A stretch of 64,000 bases of DNA from Bacteroidetes bacterium SB0662_bin_6 (lineage in GTDB: Bacteria; Bacteroidota; Rhodothermia; Rhodothermales; VXPQ01): NCBI GenBank assembly GCA_009839485.1, contig VXPQ01000018.1:62001-126000 (forward strand), given 5' to 3'. How positions within the stretch are numbered: position 1 is the stretch's first letter; every line of letters starts with the position of its first letter. The position numbers and the translations under genes were made by a program. A model generated the notes under the pieces. It saw only the letters and a program-made list of their open reading frames with translations. It did no database searches and was not told the origin of the DNA. Positions 32,124-47,792 of this stretch are shown here, in pieces.

Positions 32124-32352
32124 GGGAGGGTAGGGGCGGTGATATATTTCCATAAGACAGCGGTGCGGTAGACGGAAATGCTGAGTTTGTGGGCCTTGTC
32201 ATTCTTGATATAGTTCGGCTCCAAGTCACCACCTGCCAGAAACACTTCGGTGCCTGCGCCGACGACCTGAATGCTTCTTGGATAGTTCTTTTACGAAACC
32301 ATGTTATCGCAAATAATGTATCGGATTTTTTGCCTGTTAAGGGGGCGGATAT
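32124..32352. other. Left edge of the AT-rich island, no confident gene
   Basis: Base composition changes here from GC-rich to AT-rich. On the minus strand, 32160-32292 reads 'GAGTEVFLAGGDLEPNYIKN' and continues in frame without a start or stop of its own. It could be a degraded gene end, but no family was recognised. No direct repeat matching the right island edge was found. Confidence 0.3.
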
Positions 32353-33921
32353 CTATTTGAGCATTTCTTTGACTGTGCAGCGAATTTCTTCGAGAGCCGG
32401 ATGCTCTAGTGCAAGTGCAGTTATCATTGCATACGTTATGTCCCTTTCGGGAAGATTTAGGCTTTTCGAAAGTTGGTATGGTATACCATGATGATCCGGT
32501 AAGTTTTGCACCTGTTTAACTTTGTGGAGGGTGTCCGACTCGTTGCTCCCGATCTGAGTGGCGAATTTGCCTATATAAGGTTGTTTCTCAAGTTCCCGAA
32601 CGATCCAGCGTTCCGGGGGCAGATCGTCTCCAGGAAGTTGGCTATAATACTTTTTTGGAGTTCCCTTAAGATCTTCTCTATTCATCCATTTATTTATCTC
32701 TGCGCCTTGGCAGTCTCCGTCGAAGATGCACCTTGCCTGTCCCAGATAACCACCTCGAATATGGGCTCCCATTTGGCTGGCAACCTTAGAGGCATCACCT
32801 ATGGCTACGATACGGACTCTCGATCTAAGAGCCAACGGTAAGCAGTTAGACACGAGAGTCTCGGCAAAGTCGTCTTCCACATAGATCGTTGCCTCTTCTT
32901 GGGTTGTACCGATCATATTTGACATTGCTAACCGTGTGGTCGGAGATTGCAACACTTTGTGGTCATCATTCACTTTATTCACTAGAACTCGAGCTTCTCT
33001 GGGAAGGGCATCGATAATATGTTCCGAATGTGTGGTGAATATTATTTGTTGTTTTGTCTTCTTGACAATCTTTGTCAGGGCATTGATTAGCCTCTTTTGT
33101 GCTTCAGGGTGAAACCCATGCTCAATTTCTTCGATGAGAAGTAAACCCGCGTTCGGCAACCGCCCCAAAGCCGAAAGGATGGCGATTGCCGCATTTTCCC
33201 CAGCGCCCATATCAAAACCACTATAATCGGCACCTGCGTTGCATCTTGCTAGCCTGACTTTATTGGTTTCGTGTACATCGACCGTTGTGTATGGACGGTC
33301 CAAAATCCAGGAAAGGTTTTCCAATATATCTTCACTAAGGGATTCGGTGCTTGATTCTTTTTTGGTGCCAAACGCATTCCGTGCGTCGCGTAATTCACTG
33401 GGGGGAAGAATGCGAGACAGTGATACAAACTCGATTGATCGTTTTGGAAATCGAGGTTGTTTTGACCGGCCATAGTCTGGATTTGTCCGCCAGCGATACT
33501 TCTCTGTTCGAAGACGTTCGATCTCAATTTCGTTGCCTGCTATGCTGTAATCAAACCTGACCTTAAAATCAGTATATGAAGGAGCACTATGATGTCGAAA
33601 AAAGAAATCGCTCCAATGGTAGTTCATAAGAGATGATTGTTTACGCCTTGGTGAAGTTGGCCATGGAGCAACCCGCCAGTCTTTCGGACGCTTTGCTGAC
33701 AGTGCAGCCAGTGATAGGATTGTACTTTTCCCGACACCGTTCCGTCCGCATATTGCAGTGATTGGATAGTCAAATTCGATTCGCAACTTCTCGATTCCAC
33801 GCAACTTAGGTGGTCCGTCGATCGTTATTGCTTTCAGCAAAGTTTGGGAAAAGTCTGACGGAGGTTGTTGCCAGAAATCGAGGAGATTTTTCTCGCTATT
33901 ACTCAGACGACGACCGGGCAT
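32353..33921 (-). CDS. OLD-family ATPase-TOPRIM nuclease (GajA-like)
   Basis: 522 residues from ATG 33921, preceded by GAGGAAACTT; the in-frame TTG at 33933 is less likely. The N-terminal SMC/ABC-type ATPase has Walker A 'GRNGVGKST' (about residue 60), signature 'FDMGAGENAAIAIL', Walker B 'GLLLIEEIEHGFHP' and the H-loop 'IIFTTHSEH'. The C-terminal TOPRIM domain has the Glu in 'IYVEDDFAETLV' and the acidic pair in 'CIFDGDCQG'. This order defines OLD nucleases. OLD genes next to UvrD-like helicases are the class that includes GajA of the Gabija anti-phage system, and the upstream gene here is such a helicase (23-base overlap). It probably nicks or cuts invading DNA upon sensing. Base use is AT-rich unlike the flanks. 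Confidence 0.85.
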   Translation of the reverse strand: MPGRRLSNSEKNLLDFWQQPPSDFSQTLLKAITIDGPPKLRGIEKLRIEFDYPITAICGRNGVGKSTILSLAALSAKRPKDWRVAPWPTSPRRKQSSLMNYHWSDFFFRHHSAPSYTDFKVRFDYSIAGNEIEIERLRTEKYRWRTNPDYGRSKQPRFPKRSIEFVSLSRILPPSELRDARNAFGTKKESSTESLSEDILENLSWILDRPYTTVDVHETNKVRLARCNAGADYSGFDMGAGENAAIAILSALGRLPNAGLLLIEEIEHGFHPEAQKRLINALTKIVKKTKQQIIFTTHSEHIIDALPREARVLVNKVNDDHKVLQSPTTRLAMSNMIGTTQEEATIYVEDDFAETLVSNCLPLALRSRVRIVAIGDASKVASQMGAHIRGGYLGQARCIFDGDCQGAEINKWMNREDLKGTPKKYYSQLPGDDLPPERWIVRELEKQPYIGKFATQIGSNESDTLHKVKQVQNLPDHHGIPYQLSKSLNLPERDITYAMITALALEHPALEEIRCTVKEMLK

Positions 33922-36900
33922 AAGTTTCCTCAATAAGTTGATCCATTTCTTCCTTGCGATCTTCTTCTGGAGTGGATGTCTTGGTTACATTCCTGGAATT
34001 TGATATGAACTCACGATAACCAGAGCAGAAAACACGAAAGTCGCACTCCTTACATTGCCCCTCTGCAACACCTGTTTTCGGGAAATTGCTGTTGGTGATT
34101 CCTTTCTTGATGTCTTCAATAGTTGTCTTGACCTTTTCTTGTGCTTTTCTAAGGGTAGGAGGGGTGACATCTATCGGTATTCTAGCCTTAACCCCCTGTT
34201 GTTCGAGTTCTTCTGGAAATTCCGCGTGTGAAATGATGTGTATATCTGCTTGTTGGGGGTCTTGAGAGAAAGCATATCGAACGCCTAAAGCATAGAGTTG
34301 TATTTGGTCCTGCACTCGTTCATGAATTTTTTCATAATCCTTTAACGATTTGATGCGCGTCGCTTTGAACTCGACGAGACCGACAATCTCTCGTTGGGAT
34401 GGAGGTACATCTAAAGCATCCCGCCGCTCAAGAAGATCAACGACGCCAGAAATCAGTGCATCGGAATCTGGGACGAGTAATTCGAATGACTTCTCTGCAG
34501 CACGAGAATCCATAATCTTGTCGCCAAATTCTTCAACATACCGTGTCAGGCTGCAAATTGCAGCTTCTTGCATGGCTTTAAACGGATCTCCCCGGGTGTA
34601 ACGCAAATGAAACCTTGTTTTTACAAGCTCTTCAATCTCGGATGCATCGATAGGTGTCCCGTCGATGGCCTTCTGGTGTATCTCGGCGAGGATGTTATGT
34701 ATCTGTTGGCCATAGCCAAATTGTTCTCCAACGCCTGGACTAAAGTTCATCAATGTGCGTAATTGATATTCTCGCTCACATCGTCGAAATGTTGCCAAAT
34801 CAGAATAGGTGGTCTGAAGCATGTCAGCGTAAGCAGGAGGTTGTGGACTAGTCTTTCTACGTGGTGTAGAGTCGGTTCCATTTCTTGAAACACAGTCATG
34901 TGCGATTTCCTTGAAGTAGGCGGTTGGCCTTTTACGAGAGCGGTCTAAAGTTGACACATTCAGGAACTTTGCACAACGTGTGAGTCCAACATACCATAGG
35001 CGCCGTTCAGCGTCGTCGCCACCGACATAAGTATCAGAATTGAAAGAGTTTTCTGGAAGAAACGTATTGAGAGGTTGATTGCGTCGGCTACTAGGGAACA
35101 CATGCGACGAGATTCTCGGGAGGAACACAACCGGCCACTCCAATCCTTTGGAGGCATGCACCGTCATTATCTTCACAGAGTTAAGTGATGCGACCTCACT
35201 AATACCTCCTTCATCTACGTGACGTGCACCCCAGATCGAAAGAAAAACACACAGACTTTTCAATCGAGCCGGAGTGATCCACTGATGTACCGACTCGAAC
35301 TGTGTTAATAGGTTGCTGAAAGCACCCATATTAAACATGATATCGTTAGGCCAGTTGTCTTCAAGGATTCCGAGTTCTTGAAGCATTTTCTGAAATAGTG
35401 CCTGCGGATATATCCTAGATCCCTTATGAACATCGCGTTCATCTCTCGATAATCTCCTCTGGTCGAGATCAGCCCGCATCTTGTCGATCCAAGATAGATA
35501 ATGGGTGGAGTTGGCACTATCTCCAAAGTGGTTGCTATGCCTTAGATCGGCGATCTTTTTTCGTATGAATTCGCGGGTTCCGACTGTGTTTATTAGCTGC
35601 ATTTTTCCGTCTTTCCCTGGTAGATAGAAATCTGACTTTGCCAGCAGAGAAAAACTTGCCTGAATAAGCCGAACTTCATCGTTGTCAAAGAGACCGCCCG
35701 TACCACTGACAACGACAGGTATACCATGATCGCGGAGCGCTTTCGAAAAGTCCGTTCCAGCTCCCCGAACACTTCGCAGAAGAATCGCCATGTCACCGTA
35801 ATCTAGGCCTCGTTCTTCTCCATTTTTTTCCTTGAATACAGTCCCACGCAATTCCTCAATCCTTTTCGCGACCCACGCTGCTTCGTCAGCTTCCGTTGTG
35901 AAGCGCTGTAATTGCACATCACCTGGATCTGCGAGGTGTTCTTTTGGCGAACCATCAGGCACAAATACACGTGCAACTGGCTCCTTTGGGATGCGATGAG
36001 AAATTTTTCTGACAGCCTCATCGGCAATCTCAACGATCGCGTGGGTGGACCGAAAATTCTCTGTCAATTGAACGGTCGTGACATTAGGATATCGGTCTTC
36101 AAACCCCAACATATTTTCTACCCTTGCTCCACGAAACCCGTAGAGAGCTTGATCATCGTCACCTACTACAGTCAAGTGGGGACCACAGCCGCTATCGGTG
36201 AGCAGGTCAATAAGTCTCTCTTGGCGATCATCCACATCCTGATATTCGTCGACAAAAAGATGAGACAGATCCGAACGAAGCTTCATCAACTGATCTTTAT
36301 TTTTTTCAAGAAAATCGATCAAGTCATCAATGATTTGGTTGAAGTCCAGAAAATAGTTTGGATATCCGTATACAATCTCTCGATAATTTTCTACCGTCTT
36401 AGCAAGCACATTATCTTCGATGTTTCGGAGGTCGAGCCTTTGCTGATGCAGAACATTCAGCGTATTCATGAATGTATGCAGTGTATCGCCAAACGTCTTC
36501 ATTCGCGTACGAGAGAGAAGTTTCTCAAGTCCAATTCCCCTGCCAGAGTCTTCAAAGCGATAAAAATTGGAAGCCAAAAGGGCTGCTTGGCGGGTCTCAT
36601 CCATTACTTCAAAGCGACGAAAATCCTCTTTTCGCTCTCGTAAAACTTTTAGACAGTATGAATGGATCGTTCCAACATACATGTCCCCGAGAGAGGGCTC
36701 AGAGGGCAGCATAGTCTCAAGCCGTTGTCTGACCCGATGCTTTAGCTCGGCGCCTGCATGATTGGTAAAAGTGAAGGCGACGATTGATTCGCGGCGTACG
36801 CCATCCTTTACCATCTTGGCAATCCGATGCGCGAGCGTTTCGGTCTTCCCGCTACCGGCACAGGCAAGGATAAGAAGGTTTCCGCTATCGTGATCGATCG

Positions 36901-36934
36901 CGGCTTGCTGACTTGTTGTCGGAGAAAGAGTCAT
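33899..36934 (-). CDS. UvrD/Rep-like helicase fused to PD-(D/E)XK nuclease with Fe-S cysteines
   Basis: 1011 residues. Superfamily 1A helicase motifs are Walker A 'ACAGSGKTETLAHR' (about 24-37), Ia 'AFTFTNHAGAELKHRV', II 'LFVDEYQDVDD', III 'VVGDDDQALYGFRGA', IV 'LTENFRS', V 'VKIMTVHASKGLEWPVVFLP' and VI 'RRLWYVGLTR'. From about residue 740 comes a RecB/AddB/Cas4-type nuclease: 'YSDLATFRRCEREYQLR', then 'ISGVVDLLERRD', 'IVGLVEFKATR' (D...ExK) and 'QCKECDFRVFC', whose cysteines with the earlier Cys form a likely Fe-S cluster. It overlaps the methyltransferase stop by ATGA and the OLD gene by 23 bases. GajB helicases are about half this length and lack the nuclease, so this is not a plain Gabija pair. 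Confidence 0.9.
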   Translation of the reverse strand: MTLSPTTSQQAAIDHDSGNLLILACAGSGKTETLAHRIAKMVKDGVRRESIVAFTFTNHAGAELKHRVRQRLETMLPSEPSLGDMYVGTIHSYCLKVLRERKEDFRRFEVMDETRQAALLASNFYRFEDSGRGIGLEKLLSRTRMKTFGDTLHTFMNTLNVLHQQRLDLRNIEDNVLAKTVENYREIVYGYPNYFLDFNQIIDDLIDFLEKNKDQLMKLRSDLSHLFVDEYQDVDDRQERLIDLLTDSGCGPHLTVVGDDDQALYGFRGARVENMLGFEDRYPNVTTVQLTENFRSTHAIVEIADEAVRKISHRIPKEPVARVFVPDGSPKEHLADPGDVQLQRFTTEADEAAWVAKRIEELRGTVFKEKNGEERGLDYGDMAILLRSVRGAGTDFSKALRDHGIPVVVSGTGGLFDNDEVRLIQASFSLLAKSDFYLPGKDGKMQLINTVGTREFIRKKIADLRHSNHFGDSANSTHYLSWIDKMRADLDQRRLSRDERDVHKGSRIYPQALFQKMLQELGILEDNWPNDIMFNMGAFSNLLTQFESVHQWITPARLKSLCVFLSIWGARHVDEGGISEVASLNSVKIMTVHASKGLEWPVVFLPRISSHVFPSSRRNQPLNTFLPENSFNSDTYVGGDDAERRLWYVGLTRCAKFLNVSTLDRSRKRPTAYFKEIAHDCVSRNGTDSTPRRKTSPQPPAYADMLQTTYSDLATFRRCEREYQLRTLMNFSPGVGEQFGYGQQIHNILAEIHQKAIDGTPIDASEIEELVKTRFHLRYTRGDPFKAMQEAAICSLTRYVEEFGDKIMDSRAAEKSFELLVPDSDALISGVVDLLERRDALDVPPSQREIVGLVEFKATRIKSLKDYEKIHERVQDQIQLYALGVRYAFSQDPQQADIHIISHAEFPEELEQQGVKARIPIDVTPPTLRKAQEKVKTTIEDIKKGITNSNFPKTGVAEGQCKECDFRVFCSGYREFISNSRNVTKTSTPEEDRKEEMDQLIEETYARSSSE

Positions 36935-38013
36935 CCATGCTGCCGGATGGCTTCGCGGAATGTTGGGGCTAGGGCTCGTACTAGTTCGAAGGGAATGGCG
37001 TTACCAATTTGCGTGGCCACCATTTGGGGCGATCCTGCGAACGCATAGTCAGACGGAAACGTTTGTAGCAAAGCAGCTTCCCTAGGTGTAAGTGCCCGGT
37101 CATCCTCCGGATGAGCAAACCTTCCGCGTGTAACGTCGGTGCATCCGGTAGTCAAGGTAGGAGCTACGGTGTCCCATCTCATACGCCCATAAACATCTGG
37201 ATAGCAATTCGCAGAACGATGGCATTTCAAAGTCAATGACTTTGGCAAATCTTTCCGGCTTCCACCGTTTTGCGGGATTTCTTGCAATCGGCGGAGTGCG
37301 ATAAGCCGATGGTTTCGGGCCCGGTGAAGTGGATCGTCTGGATCTACCTCCCCCGATGAGAGGCGCCTGAGGTTAAAAATAGCATCGCGTACGGTTCGAC
37401 GCTTGTCAGGTGGGGTGGTTGGAGGTGGTAATGAGGGGACTGGTCCGTTTTTTGTCGCCATCAACAAGCATCGAAGCCGTCTCTGGGGAACGCCATAGTC
37501 AGCGGCATTAACGTGTAATGGTTGACTGAATTGATACGCTGGGCCGCAGGCTTCGCGAAACTCGGTTAGCAGATTGGCATTCACATCAGCCGCGAGGCCA
37601 GGAACATTTTCCACGAACAATACCTTTGGTTTCAACTCGGAGACGAATCGCGCTGCTTCAATCAGGAGTCGAGAGCGACGATCTCCTTTTCTGTTTCTAT
37701 TTTGGTTGCTAAACGGCTGACAAGGCGCACATACAATCATCAAATCTAAGGAAGTATTAGCCAAACATTCATTCCTGAGAGTTGACGGTGCGAGATTCCG
37801 GATATCCGTTTCATAAATAGGTACACGGGGATGATTCAACCTGTATGTAGCACACGCAACGGGGTCATTGTCGACCGCAGCAAGAACGCGGAAATGAGCT
37901 CGTTTCAAAGCTGCCGATGCTGCGCCCGATCCCGAGAAAAGGTCAATAGCCGTTGGCCATCGTCTTTCAGTTTTGCTTCGGCCCAGAAGAGAAGTGTACG
38001 GGAAGCTGTCCAT
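36931..38013 (-). CDS. C5-cytosine DNA methyltransferase (Dcm/HhaI type)
   Basis: About 360 residues from ATG 38013; GTG 38076 would add 21 residues, and neither start has a clear ribosome site. The conserved motifs appear in order: I 'AIDLFSGSGAASAALKRA', IV 'MIVCAPCQPFSNQNRNRKGD' with the catalytic Cys in PCQ, VI 'VLFVENVPGL', VIII 'GVPQRRLRCLLMA', IX 'LTPREAALLQTFP' and X 'ATQIGNAIPFELV'. The target recognition region lies between VIII and IX ('SLTLKCHRSANCYPDVYGRMRWDTVAPTLTTGC'). It transfers methyl groups to cytosine in a specific sequence, probably marking self DNA for the helicase-nuclease and OLD proteins encoded downstream with a 4-base ATGA overlap. Confidence 0.9.
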   Translation of the reverse strand: MDSFPYTSLLGRSKTERRWPTAIDLFSGSGAASAALKRAHFRVLAAVDNDPVACATYRLNHPRVPIYETDIRNLAPSTLRNECLANTSLDLMIVCAPCQPFSNQNRNRKGDRRSRLLIEAARFVSELKPKVLFVENVPGLAADVNANLLTEFREACGPAYQFSQPLHVNAADYGVPQRRLRCLLMATKNGPVPSLPPPTTPPDKRRTVRDAIFNLRRLSSGEVDPDDPLHRARNHRLIALRRLQEIPQNGGSRKDLPKSLTLKCHRSANCYPDVYGRMRWDTVAPTLTTGCTDVTRGRFAHPEDDRALTPREAALLQTFPSDYAFAGSPQMVATQIGNAIPFELVRALAPTFREAIRQHG

Positions 38014-38298
38014 GATTGGGTTACCGTTTTCCCTTAGTGGTTTGCCTTGACAAGTCGGGAAGTTCTGCGACGACACATAAGATTTGATTTCACCATGTCA
38101 TATACTCTGATGGAGTGTGGGCTTACATCGAAATTTTTTGAAGCCCTCTGTTTCAAGCGGGTTCCCCCTTACCCGAATAATCCCTTCTCTTCTCCCAGTG
38201 CTTTGTTCTTTTTTAGAACGAGGAGAGAACGTTTATTTTCGAACTAGTGACAGAAACCGGTGGGAGTTAGATGATGAGACTTGCCGAAATTGGCTGGC

Positions 38299-38418
38299 CT
38301 AGAATCGCTCGCAATCCAGTTCCTGCAACCGGCGGCCTTTCATGTGGGTCCAGGCATTGCACAGCAATTACAAGTTGTCGAAATGATCGTACCCGCTTCT
38401 CGACTGTGGTACAATGTG
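38299..38418 (-). pseudogene. HNH endonuclease remnant
   Basis: Reading the minus strand from 38418 gives 'HIVPQSRSGYDHFDNL', a stop (TAA, 38370-38368), then 'LLCNAWTHMKGRRLQEL'. Intact HNH nucleases read DHIVPxSxGGxDHxxNLQLLCxxCNxxKG, so the match covers the His, the Asn and the Cys. One CAA-to-TAA change creates the stop, and the second Cys is a Trp. The frame ends at a TAG (38299-38301). The upstream part with the first Cys pair is not recognisable. It lies 286 bases upstream of the methyltransferase start, on the same strand. Confidence 0.7.
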
Positions 38419-38542
38419 CCCGGTGCTTGAACGTGTGGTAATGCGGGGCTCTGCCTAGATCGGCGGCTCGCCCTACCCTATAGCTAGCATGTCAAGTGAT
38501 GGAGTACAGTGCCGAGGAATTTTTTCCGCAATCTCCCCATTG

Positions 38543-38770
38543 CTATAGCTCTACCCGATGTCCACGAACTTTCAGTACCCAGGTATCAGTATCATCCTTT
38601 TGTTCGGGCGCCATTATGTCTAGATTGTCTCCATGATCACTCCGCAGTCGTGTGTGCAAATCCTTATATTTCTCCTGAGTAAGGCCTTCGTGTATTAGAA
38701 CTTCTCCTATCTTCAGGTAACCCGCTGTCTGGGAGAATGCAGCCTTGAAGTCTTCCCATTCGTTTGTCAT
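38543..38770 (-). CDS. Small hypothetical protein
   Basis: 75 residues, hydrophilic, starting 'MTNEWEDFKAAFSQTAGYLK' and ending 'DTDTWVLKVRGHRVEL'. The composition looks protein-like, with a helical first half containing alternating charges and a beta-like last strand. No domain was recognised, no clear ribosome site precedes ATG 38770, and there is no signal peptide. It is the first frame on the minus strand of the AT-rich island, upstream of the HNH remnant and methyltransferase, so it could be an accessory or regulatory protein of that cassette. It may also be fortuitous. Confidence 0.45.
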   Translation of the reverse strand: MTNEWEDFKAAFSQTAGYLKIGEVLIHEGLTQEKYKDLHTRLRSDHGDNLDIMAPEQKDDTDTWVLKVRGHRVEL

Positions 38771-38995
38771 GGCTCGTATAGTTATGCTGGTGTATGTGAA
38801 TTACACAGGTTTTAGGTTGAACAGCTGAATGATTACAAGCTCTTGGGGACATTCGATGATTTCACGCAGTCCGGCAAGGCTTGCTTGCAATCGCCTTTCT
38901 GTTCTATGCAGGATACGGTAAGGCTTTGATTACACCCAACCCTTCGTCTTTTTTTCAAAAATACAATATCCAAAATCCCGCAGAGCCAAGGTACC
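38771..38995. other. Right edge of the AT-rich island, no confident gene
   Basis: The stretch is AT-rich up to about 38980 and then returns to GC-rich sequence at the end of the PVC-type gene. On the plus strand 38829-38934 reads 'LNDYKLLGTFDDFTQSGKAC' and ends in TGA after about 33 codons, without a start. It may be the tail of a lost gene, but no family was recognised. No inverted or direct repeat pairing with the left island edge was found. Confidence 0.3.
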
Positions 38996-41900
38996 TTACC
39001 CATCCCCTCCGGTCCGCCCGGAGCCCCGTATCGAAGCCATAAACTCCACGAGATCCCGGATTTCTCTCTCCGAAAGCAGGACGGACATGTCGGGCATCGC
39101 GGAAGGACCGCCTTCCGCGCCAAAACCCGGCGCGATGCGAGCCGCGGGATCCACCAGGGATTCAAGCAACTGCATCCGGTCCAGCAGCGACCCGATTCCC
39201 AAAAGAGACGGCCCTACGCCGTCCTCTCCGTTGAGACGATGACAGCGGGTACACTCTCCCGCGGAGTTCTCCAGAAAAATCCTCACGCCACGCCTCCGGT
39301 TGCCGCCGTAGAGCGCCGCGGCAAACGGCGGATTCGCTGCCCGCCAGGCTTCTACCCGGGTTTTCAGGGCATCGGAACCGGCCGCCTCCACCGCTTCCAG
39401 AATATCCAGGTGGATTTCCAGCGCGGCTTCTCCGTTCTCGAGGCGATCCAGCAATTCGCCCAGGACTTCGGTCGTCTGCGGAGAGGGCAATGCGCTCAGC
39501 GTAGTCAGCGCACTCTGCTGCTCCGGCACACTACCCTGATGCAGTGCTTCGCCGAGCACGGACGCCACTTCGTCATTGCTCAAATCGGTTTCCGTGACCA
39601 ATTCGAGCGCAAGCATGCGCACGTCGGCGCTCTCATCCGCGAGCGCCTGCCGCACGGCGCCCGCATGATCCGCTTCCGGTATGTCGAGCAGCGCCTGCAA
39701 GGCTGCTGCGCGGACTTCCTCCGAGTCGTCCATGCGCAGCCGATCCGCAAGGTGGGCGCCGGCGCCGTCGATATGCAGGCGGGCGACCGCACCGGCGGCC
39801 GCTTCGCGCACCGCCGCCTCCTCATCGGCCAACAGTATTTCTGCGAGGGGCGCGACCGCTTCCTGCGCCGCCGTCCCGGCGCGGTGTACCGGCCCCAGAT
39901 ATGCGCCGTCTACCCGATCGAGCGTGGAGGGCTCCGCCCACACGCCCAGCGCGGCAATAGCTTCCGCACGCATTGCCGCGGGCGCATCGGCCCGCGCTGC
40001 ATAGGCCGCCAGACGACCGGCATCGGCATCGCCGCCCACCCGCAGGTTGGCGCTGATCGCCCGGCGCAACAGAGACTCGTTCTCAAAAGAAGTGACATCC
40101 AGCAGGGCGGCCAGAGAAGGCAGAGCCTCCGGAATGCCCCCGTCGTCGTTGATAGCGCGGGCTGCCTCCGTAACCACGAATTCGTCGGCGTCGGCAAGAA
40201 AGGCCGAAACCCCTTCGTGCTGCATGCGCCGCAGCGCAAGCACGGCCCCCGTTCGTACTGCCTCGGAGGCATGCCCGGTAAGCGCCATGAGCGCCTCCGC
40301 ATCGCCAAGCCGCCCCAGAGCCAGCGAACCGGCGTGGCGCAGATATACGTCCTCGCCCCCAGCCTCGGCAAGCATGGTCACCAGCCCGTCCAGCGCGGGG
40401 TGGTATGCAATGCGCCCGAGGGCCTCCGCCGCAAAGAAGCGGACCCGGTCGGAATCGTCGGCAAGAAGGGGCGCGAGCGCTTCGCCTGCCGCCGCATAGC
40501 GCACGTCTCCAAGGACCTTGGCGGCCTGCGCGCGCATCTCGGGGTCCGCATCTTCCAGCAAGGCGACCAACGGCGCGGCCTGCTCCACATCCCGCAAGGC
40601 CAGTTGCCAGATCCCCCAGACGCCATGAATGCGGGCATAGGCCGTTTCGGTCTGCCGAACGGCTCGCAGAAACGTTTCCGCATCCCCCCGGCGCGCCAGT
40701 TCGAACTGCGCCTTCTGCCGCACCCGCATGTCCGGGCTATGCAGCAGATCGTAGAGCGCCTCCGCCTCTACCTCTCCAAAATCCGCGGCCAGTTGCGCGC
40801 GCACCTCGCTGCGCACCGCTTCATCCGGCTCGGCGGCGTCGAGTTTCCATACGCGCCCGGCTCCCTTGGTGCGCCATCCGTCGATCCAGTCGGCAAAGTA
40901 CAGCGCGCCGTCCGGGCCGAACGCCAACCCCACGCCGAGTACGCTCTTCACGGCCACATCTTCTTCCGCCAGTTCGAACCCTGCCCCTCTGGGCGCAAGA
41001 CGAAACGCATGAATATCCGAAGTGAAGGCGGAACCGGTGTACTCGGACATGAAAAACCGGCCGTTCCAGGCTTCGTTCAGGGCGGTGCCGGGGTTGTACA
41101 CGATCCCCGTCGGGCCGTCATGGTAATTCATGATCGGGGGAGTAATAAAGGCCGCCTGCCCTTCGAAGTGCGGCAGATACAACCCCTCGTCCATCCAGGG
41201 CTTATAGGGGTTGTTCGTTTCCTCGTGGTATTTGCCGAATTGCCAGTGCGTTCGCCAACCGCTGTCGGACCCCTCTACGAGGTATACGAGCCGCTCGCTC
41301 TCGTTCGGATGATCCCCGTCGTTGTCCACGCTGATCAGGTTGCCGTGGGCGTCGAACGCAAACTCATGCGTATTGCGCAGTCCGCGGGCGAACAGTTCCA
41401 GCCTGGAGCCATCGGGAAAAGCCCGGAGAATCGCGCCCTCCTGGGGATAATGGATAGATTCCCCTTCTTGGGAGACAAGGCTCAACCCCATATCGCCGAC
41501 GCCCCAGTAAATGCGTCCTTCCGGCCCTACGGTGATACCGGACACGCCATGTCCGGAAAATCCGGGGTGGACATTGTATCCCCAACTCAGGGTGGTTACG
41601 TCCGAGGCGTCCGGCGCGGCATTTCCCAGTACATCTTCCAGCCGGTACACGCCCGGCGCCGCGGACAAATAGATATCTTCTTCGTGCACCAGCAGCCCTC
41701 CCAGAATATCCGAAACCAGCGTATTGAAACCGGCGACGACCGTGTGCGCCTGGTCGGCTACGCCATCGCCGTCGGTATCCTCGATGCGATAAAGCCGCTC
41801 CTTGACCACCGTCAGATCGCGCCAGTCCCGCGACCCGTCTTCGTTGAGATCGGGTATCCATCCGTTCTCGTCGCTCAACTCCGGCGCCATGACCTCTCTC

Positions 41901-42349
41901 ATAAACGCTTCAAAGTCATGGGTCGTCTTCATTGCAAGCGCGTCGAGCCGCCAATCCGGGTGCTGCCGTATGTCCAGCAGACCCATGGTCCGGCTCGATC
42001 TGGTAACAAGCATTTCGCCGGTGTTCGCCACATCGATGGCCACAGGATCCTGGATCAGATCCTCGGTGGCGTACATGGAAAGAACCAGGCCGGGCGCCGC
42101 GGATGCCTCGAGGGCGGCTTCCGTCTCCCGAGCCTTGTTCGCGGCTTCGGCGGGATCCAGTTCGACGGCGGGTTCGGACGCAAAAACGAAGGGCAGCGTA
42201 TCCGGGGGGGCAATGGCCCGTTCGCCGGTGCTTTGCGCGGGACTGCACGCGGAAAACGCGCTAAAAAACAACAGGACAAGCACCGGGGCAAACAGGTAAA
42301 AACGGCAAACGGGACGGAACATCAGCGAAGCACAGGAAGAGGTGAACAT
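38996..42349 (-). CDS. PVC-type heme-binding dehydrogenase lipoprotein (propeller, HEAT repeats, cytochrome c)
   Basis: 1117 residues from ATG 42349, with ATG 42322 as alternative. The lipoprotein signal ends 'VLVLLFFSAFSAC'. A beta-propeller (about 85-510) contains 'LVLSMYATEDLIQDPVAIDVANTGEMLVTRS', 'RLYRIEDTDGDGVADQAHTVV' and 'GVGLAFGPDGALYFADWIDGW'. About 500 residues of HEAT repeats follow ('DPEMRAQAAKVLGDVRYAAAGEAL', 'SDRVRFFAAEALGRIAYHPALDGL'). The C-terminal cytochrome c domain carries the heme motif CTRCH in 'ECTRCHRLNGEDGVGPSLLGIG' and the axial Met in 'SAMPDMSVLLSEREIRDLVEFM'. This is the full architecture that the paralogue at 15633 lacks. It should oxidise a sugar or alcohol in the periplasm and pass electrons to its own heme. 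Confidence 0.9.
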   Translation of the reverse strand: MFTSSCASLMFRPVCRFYLFAPVLVLLFFSAFSACSPAQSTGERAIAPPDTLPFVFASEPAVELDPAEAANKARETEAALEASAAPGLVLSMYATEDLIQDPVAIDVANTGEMLVTRSSRTMGLLDIRQHPDWRLDALAMKTTHDFEAFMREVMAPELSDENGWIPDLNEDGSRDWRDLTVVKERLYRIEDTDGDGVADQAHTVVAGFNTLVSDILGGLLVHEEDIYLSAAPGVYRLEDVLGNAAPDASDVTTLSWGYNVHPGFSGHGVSGITVGPEGRIYWGVGDMGLSLVSQEGESIHYPQEGAILRAFPDGSRLELFARGLRNTHEFAFDAHGNLISVDNDGDHPNESERLVYLVEGSDSGWRTHWQFGKYHEETNNPYKPWMDEGLYLPHFEGQAAFITPPIMNYHDGPTGIVYNPGTALNEAWNGRFFMSEYTGSAFTSDIHAFRLAPRGAGFELAEEDVAVKSVLGVGLAFGPDGALYFADWIDGWRTKGAGRVWKLDAAEPDEAVRSEVRAQLAADFGEVEAEALYDLLHSPDMRVRQKAQFELARRGDAETFLRAVRQTETAYARIHGVWGIWQLALRDVEQAAPLVALLEDADPEMRAQAAKVLGDVRYAAAGEALAPLLADDSDRVRFFAAEALGRIAYHPALDGLVTMLAEAGGEDVYLRHAGSLALGRLGDAEALMALTGHASEAVRTGAVLALRRMQHEGVSAFLADADEFVVTEAARAINDDGGIPEALPSLAALLDVTSFENESLLRRAISANLRVGGDADAGRLAAYAARADAPAAMRAEAIAALGVWAEPSTLDRVDGAYLGPVHRAGTAAQEAVAPLAEILLADEEAAVREAAAGAVARLHIDGAGAHLADRLRMDDSEEVRAAALQALLDIPEADHAGAVRQALADESADVRMLALELVTETDLSNDEVASVLGEALHQGSVPEQQSALTTLSALPSPQTTEVLGELLDRLENGEAALEIHLDILEAVEAAGSDALKTRVEAWRAANPPFAAALYGGNRRRGVRIFLENSAGECTRCHRLNGEDGVGPSLLGIGSLLDRMQLLESLVDPAARIAPGFGAEGGPSAMPDMSVLLSEREIRDLVEFMASIRGSGRTGGDG

Positions 42350-42423
42350 TGAGGCCGCATGGACAGTATGTGATGTTGCGCGATCAGGCGCACTACAGAA
42401 GCATAACGATAGACAATTCTTGC

Positions 42424-43158
42424 ATGGGAATCCACCGGGAAACGAATCGGGAAATCCCTGCGGCCGCCGTGCTGAACGGGAAATTGCTCGAGGCCGTCAA
42501 TCGGCGCGCCGGATACGCTTCTTCCGGGAACGGATCCCCTTCGGGCGCGCACCGGAATGCGCCGGAATCGATGCGCCTGTGGTTTCTGGATACGCCGCTC
42601 GGACCCGTGCTGGCCGGATGCACCGGGGGCTCCGGCACGGCCGGCAGGCTGTGCCTGTTGACGTTCCCCCCCGAAGAAACGCTCCGGGAAACCGATTCCC
42701 TTTGCGAATATCTGACGAGGCTCGCGCAGCGGCTGGACCTGCCTGTTTCCTGCGGCGGCGAGTCGGAAAACGGCGCCCCTGGCATGGACCCGCTGGCGGA
42801 GCAACTGGCACGGGAACTCAGCGAGTGGTTCGCCGGAGCGCGCCGGGATTTCGACCTGCCGCTTGCCCTGCGCGGAACGCCATTCCAGCGAAGCGTATGG
42901 GAGGCGCTCCGCGCCATACCGTACGGAGCCGTGCAATCCTACGGGGAATTGGCGAAATCGCTCGGCAAACCCGACGCGGTGCGAGCGGTAGGCGCCGCCA
43001 ACGGGCGCAACCCGGTCTCCATCGTCGTACCGTGCCACCGGGTGATCGGCGCAAACGGCTCGCTGACCGGCTATGCAGGCGGCCTGGAGCGGAAACGCTT
43101 CCTGCTCGCCCTCGAACAGGGTCAGGCGCCGGAAGCACAGGGGGAATTGTTCGGGTAG
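42424..43158 (+). CDS. Methylated-DNA--protein-cysteine methyltransferase (MGMT/Ogt family)
   Basis: 244 residues from ATG 42424. The start is uncertain: the frame is open to 42349, and ATG 42571 ('MRLWFLDTPLGPVLAG') fits the family's usual 160-190 residues better. The C-terminal domain has all landmarks: the helix-turn-helix region 'GTPFQRSVWEALRAIPYGAVQSYGELAKSLGKPDAVRAVGAANGRNP', with Arg finger and Asn hinge, and the active site 'IVVPCHRVIGANGSLTGYAGGLERKR' whose Cys accepts the alkyl group. It repairs O6-alkylguanine by suicide transfer. An insert near 'CGGESENGAPGMD' lies in the linker. It is divergent from the PVC-type gene. Confidence 0.9.
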   Translation: MGIHRETNREIPAAAVLNGKLLEAVNRRAGYASSGNGSPSGAHRNAPESMRLWFLDTPLGPVLAGCTGGSGTAGRLCLLTFPPEETLRETDSLCEYLTRLAQRLDLPVSCGGESENGAPGMDPLAEQLARELSEWFAGARRDFDLPLALRGTPFQRSVWEALRAIPYGAVQSYGELAKSLGKPDAVRAVGAANGRNPVSIVVPCHRVIGANGSLTGYAGGLERKRFLLALEQGQAPEAQGELFG

Positions 43159-45174: not shown

Positions 45175-47025
45175 ATGGCTTTGATAGGCAATTATTATCT
45201 GGTTCTGCCTGAAGACTGGCTGTTTCCCGGCCACGGCAATGTGATGGACGGTAAGCGTCGAGCCGAAGAATATTTCGAAATTCACGGCACCTACGACGGT
45301 GCCGAGTACAAGATTGAGGAGTTCATTCGCCAATGGGTCCTGGCTCAACTTCTTGAAGCATACAGGTATCCCGTCCATTGGATCGGAGAGCGGATCGTTG
45401 TCGAGGAACTTGTAAAGATGGGCTCCACTGAGAAAGAGGCTGATGTTTCTATCAAAAACGCGAATCACCGCACGTTCCTATATGTGGAAACCAAGAGTCG
45501 CGGAATTTCTGACAGCGAGTTCACAGAAGCGGAGCGACAGCTCGAAACATATCTTGCCTCCACACATACCGCGACCATCGGCATGGTGACTGATGGTGAA
45601 CGGGTCAAGGCCATTCGTAAGAAGGTCGATCCCAATGACTTTGAGTACATTCCTGACTTACCATCCTATGGTCTGAAACCGTCGATTAGGGCGCAATTGG
45701 TGCGCGAGTTGCCCGATAATATTGGAGAGGGCCGAAGCACTGGATTAAAGGTGCTGGATAACGACTACGAGCGTGTTTTATTTGACTGTCACAGTGCATC
45801 GCGTGATGCGGATGGATTACATGCCGATGAGGCCTTGGACGAAATTTGCAAAGTGATCTACGCAAAGATATTCGACGAACGTAATGTTACCAAACAGGCT
45901 GAGGGTACTCCGTTTCGATTTCAGACATTTGGAGCCAGCAACGCATCAGAAGTCGCATCAAATATTCGGGTGCTCTACGAAGAGGCGCGGAACACTGATA
46001 TCGAGGTGTATTCTAAGCGGATTCCGGGCTACGAGAGATCGCGAGGAGTTTTCAAGAATCAGCTGCGCTTGTCAGACGTGGCTCTGTATCGCGTAGTGGA
46101 GCGCTTGCAGGAATTTTCTCTCATTGATAGCAAGGCAGACATAAAAGGTAGGGCATTCCAGAAAATCCTCGGGCCCGCAATTCGGGCTGGAATGGGACAA
46201 TACTTCACGCCTGATCCCATCGTAGAATTGGCAATAGGCATCGTACAGCCACGGGCTACAGACCTCATTCTTGATCCGTTCTGCGGCTCAGCACACTTTC
46301 TGACCAAGGCGCTGAAGTTCGTGGTGGAGAATCAAAGTCATTCTCTTACACCGCACGCGTTGCACGAATTCAAATTTTTCCATCTGCATGGGATTGACAA
46401 ATCTGACCGGATGGTGCGTGTTGCAATGACAGACATGATGCTGCACGATGATGGCCACACAAATATCAGAAATCAAGACGCTCTATTGAGTTTTGACAAT
46501 TACCCTGATGTGATCGCTTTGCGCGATGACGGCAACCAAGATCCAGCAATCTTCGATATTGTCCTTACTAACCCACCGTTTGGGAGCATCATGAAACAAG
46601 AGGTCATAGAGATGCTCGGTCGTTTCGACTTGGGCCACAAGAGGAAGTCTCTGCCACTTGAAATACTAGGTTTGGAGCGGAGCCTGCAATTTCTAAAGCC
46701 GGGTGGAAGGTTGGCGATTGTGTTGCCTGAGCATTTGACGAAGGGCAAGAGAGCGTTATTTGTGCGGAAGTGGGTACATGAAATTGCCAGTATCAAGGCC
46801 ATCTTCTTCTTTCCAGAGGACGCATTTACTCCGTTCGGCGCAATGGTCAAGACATGCTTGTGCGTCTTTCAAAAGCTCAAGGAAGGCGAAAGGCCCACCG
46901 ATTCTCAACCTGCGTTCCTGTGTGAGATCGAGAACCTTGGGTACGAAGCGACCGGGAAAGCGAAGACGGGTACCGAGGTGCCAGCCGCCATTGCGGCATT
47001 CCATGCACAGGTGGGGTGGAGATGA
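45175..47025 (+). CDS. Restriction-modification fusion: PD-(D/E)XK nuclease + N6-adenine methylase (BcgI-A/HsdRM-like)
   Basis: 616 residues. The N-terminal 150 residues match the type I HsdR N-terminal nuclease: 'IVVEELVKMGSTEKEADVSI' (Asp90) and 'RTFLYVETKSRG' (Glu105-Thr-Lys107) form the D...ExK site. A helical linker follows. The N6-adenine methylase domain has 'GRAFQKILGPAIRAGMGQYFTPDPIVELA', motif I 'LILDPFCGSAHFL' (about 363), and the catalytic 'VLTNPPFGS' (NPPF, about 466). With the separate specificity subunit overlapping its stop, this matches BcgI-type type IIB enzymes in order and size, cutting on both sides of the site. Type I is less likely, as no HsdR helicase gene is present. 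The gene is AT-richer than its surroundings. Confidence 0.85.
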   Translation: MALIGNYYLVLPEDWLFPGHGNVMDGKRRAEEYFEIHGTYDGAEYKIEEFIRQWVLAQLLEAYRYPVHWIGERIVVEELVKMGSTEKEADVSIKNANHRTFLYVETKSRGISDSEFTEAERQLETYLASTHTATIGMVTDGERVKAIRKKVDPNDFEYIPDLPSYGLKPSIRAQLVRELPDNIGEGRSTGLKVLDNDYERVLFDCHSASRDADGLHADEALDEICKVIYAKIFDERNVTKQAEGTPFRFQTFGASNASEVASNIRVLYEEARNTDIEVYSKRIPGYERSRGVFKNQLRLSDVALYRVVERLQEFSLIDSKADIKGRAFQKILGPAIRAGMGQYFTPDPIVELAIGIVQPRATDLILDPFCGSAHFLTKALKFVVENQSHSLTPHALHEFKFFHLHGIDKSDRMVRVAMTDMMLHDDGHTNIRNQDALLSFDNYPDVIALRDDGNQDPAIFDIVLTNPPFGSIMKQEVIEMLGRFDLGHKRKSLPLEILGLERSLQFLKPGGRLAIVLPEHLTKGKRALFVRKWVHEIASIKAIFFFPEDAFTPFGAMVKTCLCVFQKLKEGERPTDSQPAFLCEIENLGYEATGKAKTGTEVPAAIAAFHAQVGWR

Positions 47026-47792
47026 AGATTCTACTTAAGAATTCTAAGGAGCTACAGAGTGCCGGTCGTTGGGACATAGATTTCCACCTGCCGCCCGAAG
47101 GCATCCTCAAATTTTCGAAGAGTCTTCTAAGGCGCGTTGATCAAGTCGCAGATATAGTTAAGGATAAACGTGATCCAACAAGGGAACCGGACAAAGGATT
47201 CCGATACATTGATATCTCTTCAGTGGATGTAGCTATCGGAGTAGTGACAAACCCACAGGACATCGAAGGCTCGGAAGCTCCATCCCGCGCACGAAAAGTA
47301 GTGCGAGCGTTTGATCTCGTGGTCTCTACATGCCGGCCAACACGAGGTGCTATTGCTGTTGTGCCCGTGAAGCTACACGATCAAATTGCATCAACGGCCT
47401 TTTCCATCGTGCGTGCACATGATGATGTCAACCCGTTTTACCTTCATTACGCATTGCGCCTCCCCAGTACTTTGGAGCAATTTCGAAAGTGGAGCACCGG
47501 TTCAAGTTATCCGGCTATTCTTGACAGCGATGTTAAAAAGACAATCATCCCGGTACCCACAATTGAAGAGCAGGACGCAATCGCAGCGAAGGTGGTCGCT
47601 GCCTTACGCGAATACAGAAAAGCAATCCGTGTCGCCAATAGAGATTGGAGCAAGGCCCTTGAGGAAATCACTGGGTCTCTCAGCGGTCAGCAGGCTTATA
47701 GACCAACGGCCGTTATAGAAGAAGAATTGGATGCAGTTTTACTGACTGATGTCCAAGCGAGGTTGGCTGAGCTACCACCAATTTCCACGTAG
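47022..47792 (+). CDS. Specificity subunit (HsdS/BcgI-B-like), single recognition domain
   Basis: 256 residues. ATG 47022 overlaps the methylase stop (ATGA) and is preceded by GGTGGAG, so it is preferred over 47016. One target recognition domain is visible: 'VDQVADIVKDKRDPTREPDKGFRYIDISSVDVAIGVV', 'ARKVVRAFDLVVSTCRPTRGAIAVVP', 'FYLHYALRLPSTLEQFRKWSTGSSYPAILDSDVKKTIIPVPTIEEQDAI'. A single coiled-coil-like helix ('AAKVVAALREYRKAIRVANRDWSKALEEI') follows. Type I S subunits normally carry two such domains and about 400 residues, so a half-size subunit would act as a dimer on a symmetric site or with another partner, as BcgI-B-like proteins do. It gives the methylase-nuclease its sequence recognition. 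Confidence 0.82.
   Translation: MKILLKNSKELQSAGRWDIDFHLPPEGILKFSKSLLRRVDQVADIVKDKRDPTREPDKGFRYIDISSVDVAIGVVTNPQDIEGSEAPSRARKVVRAFDLVVSTCRPTRGAIAVVPVKLHDQIASTAFSIVRAHDDVNPFYLHYALRLPSTLEQFRKWSTGSSYPAILDSDVKKTIIPVPTIEEQDAIAAKVVAALREYRKAIRVANRDWSKALEEITGSLSGQQAYRPTAVIEEELDAVLLTDVQARLAELPPIST

What the first reader, a model, noticed from the sequence alone, without database searches (positions are those of the whole stretch)
32353..38418. Candidate composite defence cassette: C5-cytosine methylase + UvrD-PD-(D/E)XK helicase-nuclease + OLD ATPase-TOPRIM, with a decayed HNH nuclease
Three genes overlap (4 bases ATGA, then 23 bases), share a strand and are AT-rich against GC-rich flanks, so they moved in together. 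OLD-plus-UvrD is the core of Gabija, but GajB helicases lack the C-terminal RecB/Cas4-like Fe-S nuclease seen here and GajAB has no methylase. The methylase would let the system tell self from non-self DNA, turning a Gabija-like effector into a restriction-like system. An HNH remnant upstream suggests an earlier nuclease was replaced by the helicase/OLD module. I know of no described system with exactly this gene set.
Basis: partly seen in the sequence, partly recalled or inferred. Interest (0 to 1): 0.82.

Follow-up and report, generated by a model that had tools for sequence, protein, structure and literature searches.

The report
Methylase, helicase-nuclease and OLD defence operon
A recently acquired bacterial operon joins a DNA-cytosine methylase and a DNA-unwinding nuclease, a pair already suspected of destroying foreign DNA, to a third gene resembling a known phage-blocking protein; the pair recurs in unrelated bacteria, but the third gene looks like an exchangeable add-on.

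Summary
They sit in a 6.9-kb AT-rich insert (47% GC against 61-64%) that is absent from sister genomes. The core is not Gabija. It is a C5-cytosine methylase (MTase) paired with a UvrD helicase fused to a Cas4/RecB-type nuclease, a context described in 2017 as a predicted defence module (PMC5704561). Among 12 other loci found by helicase similarity alone, 10 have the MTase next door. The figure is 0/44 for more distant fused helicases and 0/102 for unfused UvrD-like ones. The two proteins diverged in parallel (Mantel r = 0.88), and the window's MTase falls in a clade made almost wholly of such MTases. The third gene is not GajA: its best PADLOC match is HEC-04 (184 bits; GajA 44), the IbfA-like ATPase-TOPRIM family reported to block phages alone. 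It is an occasional partner (this locus and one prophage of 13), and other HEC-04-like genes sit alone at this same chromosomal site in three sister species. Most likely: a restriction-like MTase/helicase-nuclease pair that picked up an abortive-infection-type second effector. The HNH remnant is probably real. New variant of a known, untested kind.

The parts
36931..38076 (-). C5-cytosine DNA methyltransferase (P0001), all catalytic motifs intact (DLFSGSG, PCQ, ENV, QRR, IGN)
   Evidence: PF00145 E=1.3e-54; falls in the clade of MTases adjacent to UvrD-Cas4 genes, support 100/98; alignment A4
33899..36934 (-). UvrD-type SF1 helicase fused to a C-terminal Cas4/RecB/AddB-type Fe-S nuclease (P0002, 1011 aa)
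   Evidence: PF00580/PF13361/PF12705; invariant helicase, nuclease and Fe-S residues in 15 relatives; AlphaFold2 model pLDDT 77.6, best PDB match AddA 4cej_A
32353..33921 (-). OLD-type ABC ATPase + TOPRIM protein, HEC-04/IbfA-like (P0003); the mechanical ORF extends to 33933 with TTG
   Evidence: PADLOC HEC-04 E=1.2e-54, 183.8 bits against GajA 44.3 and Old 43.4; conserved E353, D405, D407; ATG with GAGGA upstream
38299..38454 (-). Probable HNH endonuclease remnant with an internal stop
   Evidence: HNH_5 E=2.9e-4, HNH E=4.3e-4 on read-through with X, below gathering scores
38543..38776 (-). Small ORF of 77 aa of unknown nature inside the insert, upstream of the operon
   Evidence: no Pfam or PADLOC match
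32131..38993 (.). Horizontally acquired insert between the UPF0182 gene and the heme/HEAT-repeat gene
   Evidence: no match to sister genomes between 32130 and 38994; site empty in G353 and G314; HEC-04-like gene at the site in G302, G540 and G541; GC 0.474 against 0.61-0.64

Best explanation
A mobile, restriction-like defence operon made of a two-gene core and an add-on. Core: the C5-MTase marks a fixed sequence in host DNA, and the UvrD-Cas4 helicase-nuclease unwinds and degrades DNA that lacks the mark, probably recruited or licensed through the MTase, because the helicase carries no recognisable target-recognition domain. Add-on: a HEC-04/IbfA-like ATPase-TOPRIM protein, translationally coupled to the helicase, acts as a second, abortive-infection-type effector if the core is blocked or overwhelmed. 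Shown: intact active sites, overlapping genes, horizontal insertion, a conserved and co-diverging MTase-helicase pair. Inferred: defence function, discrimination by methylation, licensing through the MTase, the backup role of OLD.
For: MTase adjacent in 10/12 loci of the close helicase family, against 0/44 more distant nuclease-fused and 0/102 unfused UvrD-like genes. Parallel divergence of MTase and helicase, Mantel r=0.877, p=1e-4. MTases of these loci form one supported clade that holds the window's, and their TRD region is strikingly conserved, suggesting one target site. Repair genes for deaminated 5mC often sit beside the pair: Vsr in 6/12, HhH-GPD glycosylase in L034. Extra nucleases vary between loci: HNH_2, HNH, NOV_C. 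Loci lie in prophage or integrase settings (L116 Phage_GPD; L119 and the more distant L033 integrase). OLD: best match HEC-04, whose E. coli member is reported to protect alone against T4 and T5 (PMC12111858). HEC-04-like genes also sit beside a type II RM with C5-MTase (L018), a type I HsdR gene (L015) and an N6-MTase (L019). PMC12839542 proposes TOPRIM/OLD proteins as backup suicidal effectors of methylation-based systems.
Against: No functional data. The window's helicase is an outlier (about 30% identity to the rest, which share 46% or more), so function may have drifted. No gene in the window operon obviously reads unmethylated sites. OLD is in only 1 of the other 12 loci. PMC12111858 argues that IbfA works without ATP depletion, so its mode of action is unsettled.
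Confidence: 0.55

Rival explanations
1. OLD is a pure passenger: an autonomous HEC-04/IbfA-like defence gene that happens to lie downstream of the MTase/UvrD-Cas4 pair and has no functional tie to it.
For: Lone HEC-04-like genes occupy the same chromosomal site in G302, G540 and G541. HEC-04 and IbfA act as single genes (PMC12111858). Only 2 of 13 loci have an OLD in the operon.
Against: The 23-base overlap with a Shine-Dalgarno-like GAGGA inside the helicase gene implies co-translation. The lone OLDs at the site are only about 25-27% identical to P0003 and have host-like GC (0.57-0.58 against 0.46), so P0003 came with the insert. A second operon (L116) independently has an OLD 39 bases from its MTase.
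Confidence: 0.25
2. One reading: one integrated three-component machine in which OLD is the main restriction nuclease, the helicase its partner as in GajAB, and the methylase its licence.
For: Gene order and overlaps; OLD plus a UvrD-type helicase resembles GajAB in gene content; a C5-MTase is present.
Against: The helicase pairs with the MTase without OLD in most relatives. OLD and helicase are not GajA/GajB-like by score. The helicase carries its own complete nuclease.
Confidence: 0.12
3. Not defence: the MTase/UvrD-Cas4 pair serves repair or recombination (AddAB/RecB-like end processing) linked to 5mC and T:G mismatch repair.
For: Top structural match is AddA; Vsr or HhH-GPD neighbours.
Against: Patchy, mobile distribution: an insert at a variable site here, prophage or integrase settings elsewhere; HNH, NOV_C and OLD neighbours.
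Confidence: 0.08

Closest known systems
UvrD-Cas4 fusion in Dcm (+/- Vsr) context, predicted defence module (Hudaiberdiev et al. 2017, PMC5704561)
   Same: SF1 UvrD-like helicase fused to a pfam12705 Cas4-like nuclease, next to a DNA-cytosine methylase; Vsr in several loci
   Different: The passages read there do not describe an OLD/TOPRIM gene in this context; the window lacks Vsr and its helicase is a divergent member (about 30% identity)
HEC-04 / IbfA (ABC ATPase-TOPRIM; PMC12111858)
   Same: Best PADLOC model, nearly full-length match, intact ATPase and TOPRIM residues
   Different: Single-gene defences; HEC-04 was found embedded in Hma loci, here overlapping a UvrD-Cas4 gene
Gabija (GajA OLD + GajB UvrD-like)
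   Same: An OLD ATPase-TOPRIM gene next to a UvrD-family helicase
   Different: Helicase has a C-terminal Fe-S nuclease and a methylase partner; OLD scores 184 bits as HEC-04 and 44 as GajA; helicase scores higher as PcrA (246) than as any GajB (176)
Hma (helicase, m5C methyltransferase, ATPase; PMC8565338)
   Same: Same three activity words, including an m5C methyltransferase
   Different: No Hma model among the best matches; the ATPase here is HEC-04-like, not shown to be HmaC-like
Dcm/Vsr/MORC restriction-like systems (Iyer et al. 2008, PMC2292703)
   Same: Cytosine methylase plus Vsr with an ATPase and a helicase
   Different: Those use GHKL ATPases and SF2 helicases; here an SF1 helicase-nuclease and an ABC-type OLD ATPase

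Membership tests
UvrD-Cas4 / Dcm predicted defence module | UvrD-like SF1 helicase fused to a pfam12705 nuclease in one protein | tested here: met
UvrD-Cas4 / Dcm predicted defence module | Adjacent DNA-cytosine methylase | tested here: met
   4-base overlap; same MTase clade as relatives
UvrD-Cas4 / Dcm predicted defence module | Vsr nuclease gene (optional: in some loci only) | tested here: not met
   No Vsr in the insert (ORFs); optional feature, 6/12 relatives have it
Gabija | OLD protein of GajA type | tested here: not met
   GajA 44.3 bits against HEC-04 183.8
Gabija | GajB-type UvrD helicase without nuclease domain | tested here: not met
   1011 aa with complete Cas4-like nuclease; solved GajB chains are 493-499 aa
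HEC-04 / IbfA | ABC ATPase fused to TOPRIM, best match to the HEC-04 model | tested here: met
   E=1.2e-54, residues 144-512; TOPRIM part alone also best as HEC-04
HEC-04 / IbfA | Embedded in an Hma locus | tested here: not met
   Neighbours are the C5-MTase and UvrD-Cas4 genes; no Hma models in the complete lists for the nuclease, TRD and TOPRIM fragments
HEC-04 / IbfA | Phage protection as a single gene | not testable with these tools
   needs plaque assays
Hma | HmaA, HmaB and HmaC model matches | tested here: inconclusive
   Not among the 25 best PADLOC families of any of the three proteins, but longer lists were cut
Type II restriction-modification | MTase with cognate site-specific endonuclease | tested here: inconclusive
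   MTase matches type II MTase models; no recognisable type II REase in the insert

The most novel reading that the evidence does not exclude
A methylation-licensed restriction system in which an MTase/UvrD-Cas4 pair and an OLD ATPase-TOPRIM nuclease work as one coupled unit, the OLD firing only when the core meets unmethylated DNA or is inhibited.
Probability: 0.18. Interest if true: 0.6.

Novelty: new variant of a known kind. Interest (0 to 1): 0.38.

Why it matters
The MTase/UvrD-Cas4 pair was predicted in 2017 to be a defence module, and I found no experimental test of it. Here it is shown to be a conserved, co-diverging, mobile pair across at least four phyla, with repair and nuclease add-ons that differ from locus to locus, so it is ready to clone and test. 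The OLD gene adds a case to an emerging pattern: ATPase-TOPRIM genes attach to methylation-based systems and occupy variable chromosomal sites, as if they were plug-in second effectors.

Tried and rejected
Gabija membership: rejected on model scores and on the fused nuclease. OLD as a conserved third component: not supported, 1 of 12 other loci. 'HNH replaced by helicase/OLD': rejected, since relatives keep HNH genes beside the helicase. Close relatives of P0002 and P0003 in viral contigs by single-protein scans: none. OLD alignment as a collection query: too divergent. AlphaFold model of OLD: pLDDT 44.6, not used. Flanking repeats and tRNA at the insert: no convincing direct repeats, no tRNA. 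Promoter and terminator scans: no more hits than shuffled sequence. Plasmid and phage collections: one plasmid relative in a type III-like (DNA methyltransferase plus DEAD helicase) context (Athalassotoga) and one phage helicase.

Full report
WHAT IS THERE. The MTase stop and helicase start share ATGA. The OLD gene most likely starts at ATG 33921, inside the helicase gene, preceded by GAGGA, which gives the stated 23-base overlap. Domains: C5-MTase; UvrD helicase plus PDDEXK_1 nuclease; AAA_15/21-type ABC ATPase, with the TOPRIM motifs E353 and D405/D407 conserved in eight aligned proteins. The nuclease keeps every active-site residue of the RecB/Cas4 family and the four Fe-S cysteines, all but one (E/D at motif III) invariant over 15 relatives. 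An AlphaFold2 model (pLDDT 77.6) matches AddA best in the PDB.

IT MOVED IN AS ONE PIECE. The insert runs from about 32131 to 38993, GC 0.474 against 0.61-0.64 in the flanks. In the sister genomes G353 and G314 the UPF0182 gene is followed within about 10 bases by the MGMT/heme-protein block, so the site is empty. In G302, G540 and G541 the same site holds one HEC-04-like ATPase-TOPRIM gene with near-host GC of 0.57-0.58. The site is therefore variable in this genus and has twice held an ATPase-TOPRIM gene. The 4.2-kb MGMT/heme block is inverted in the window and G541 relative to the other sisters.

THE CORE PAIR. Relatives were collected by helicase similarity only. Of 12 non-redundant close relatives (profile score of at least 1000 bits), 10 have a C5-MTase within 1.5 kb: 8 upstream on the same strand, 2 divergent. 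The two exceptions are L118, cut by the contig end, and L037. Of 44 more distant nuclease-fused helicases none does, and of 102 unfused UvrD-like helicases none does. The hosts include genomes of the window's own phylum (G001, G061, G108, G137, G303), Dehalococcoidales, Nitrospirales, deltaproteobacteria, and viral or prophage contigs. MTase and helicase distances correlate (Mantel r=0.877, p=0.0001, 11 loci). In a tree with ten other sequences from a search with the window's MTase or from an OLD locus, the pair's MTases, the window's included, share a supported clade that holds only two others. Their TRD region is unusually conserved, so I infer a common or similar target site. Vsr or an HhH-GPD glycosylase, which would repair deaminated 5mC, often sits alongside, which suggests that the MTase really methylates. 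Extra nucleases vary: HNH_2 (L028, L029, L032), HNH (L116), NOV_C (L035, L118).

THE OLD GENE. Its best PADLOC model is HEC-04 (183.8 bits); GajA and Old are near 44. HEC-04 and the related IbfA are reported to interfere with phages as single ATPase-TOPRIM genes (PMC12111858). Among the pair's relatives only L116 also has an OLD, immediately upstream of the MTase and about 22% identical. HEC-04-like genes elsewhere in the phylum sit beside a C5-MTase type II RM with a PDC-S36 gene (L018), a type I HsdR gene (L015) and an N6-MTase (L019). This fits the proposal that TOPRIM/OLD proteins serve as backup suicidal effectors of methylation-based systems (PMC12839542). That role is inference here.

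HNH REMNANT. The frame at 38454-38299 (-) reads HIVPQSRSGYDHFDNL*LLCNAWTHMKG, an HNH-like motif with a stop. E=2.9e-4 for HNH_5 on the chosen piece and 0.0045 on the whole frame: probable. HNH genes accompany the helicase in relatives, so this is better read as a decayed accessory than as a predecessor.

COMPARISON. The UvrD-Cas4/Dcm(/Vsr) context was described in 2017 as a predicted defence system (PMC5704561), so the core is known in kind; I found no experimental work on it. Hma has the same three activity words but no model match here. Gabija fails on both genes. The new points are the OLD gene coupled to this core, the quantified pairing and co-divergence, and the variable insertion site.

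Noticed in passing
window 45175-47792 (+): A second AT-rich locus (about 50% GC, 45-48 kb): an HSDR_N_2 + N6_Mtase fusion overlapping a Methylase_S-like gene, i.e. a type IIG/I-like restriction-modification locus 7 kb from the cassette.
   Followed up: partly
window 38994-43157: The block with the heme/HEAT-repeat gene and an MGMT gene is inverted in the window and G541 relative to G353, G314, G302 and G540.
   Followed up: partly
L013:7295-8845, L188:4405-5982, L191:8395-9945: Lone HEC-04-like ATPase-TOPRIM gene at the same chromosomal site in three sister genomes (91-98% identical to one another, about 26% to the window's OLD).
   Followed up: yes
L018:4407-9727: Tight operon of C5-MTase, a REase_II/PD-Lambda-3_B-like gene, HEC-04-like OLD and PDC-S36: another case of HEC-04 attached to a methylation-based system.
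   Followed up: partly
L044:7980-15296, L114:4506-12800, L174:6938-15799: More distant UvrD-nuclease fusions next to an N6/N4 methyltransferase (L174: annotated DNA methyltransferase) and a ResIII/DEAD helicase, matching the type III context of the 2017 paper.
   Followed up: no
window 38543-38776 (-): 77-aa ORF upstream of the MTase without any family match.
   Followed up: no
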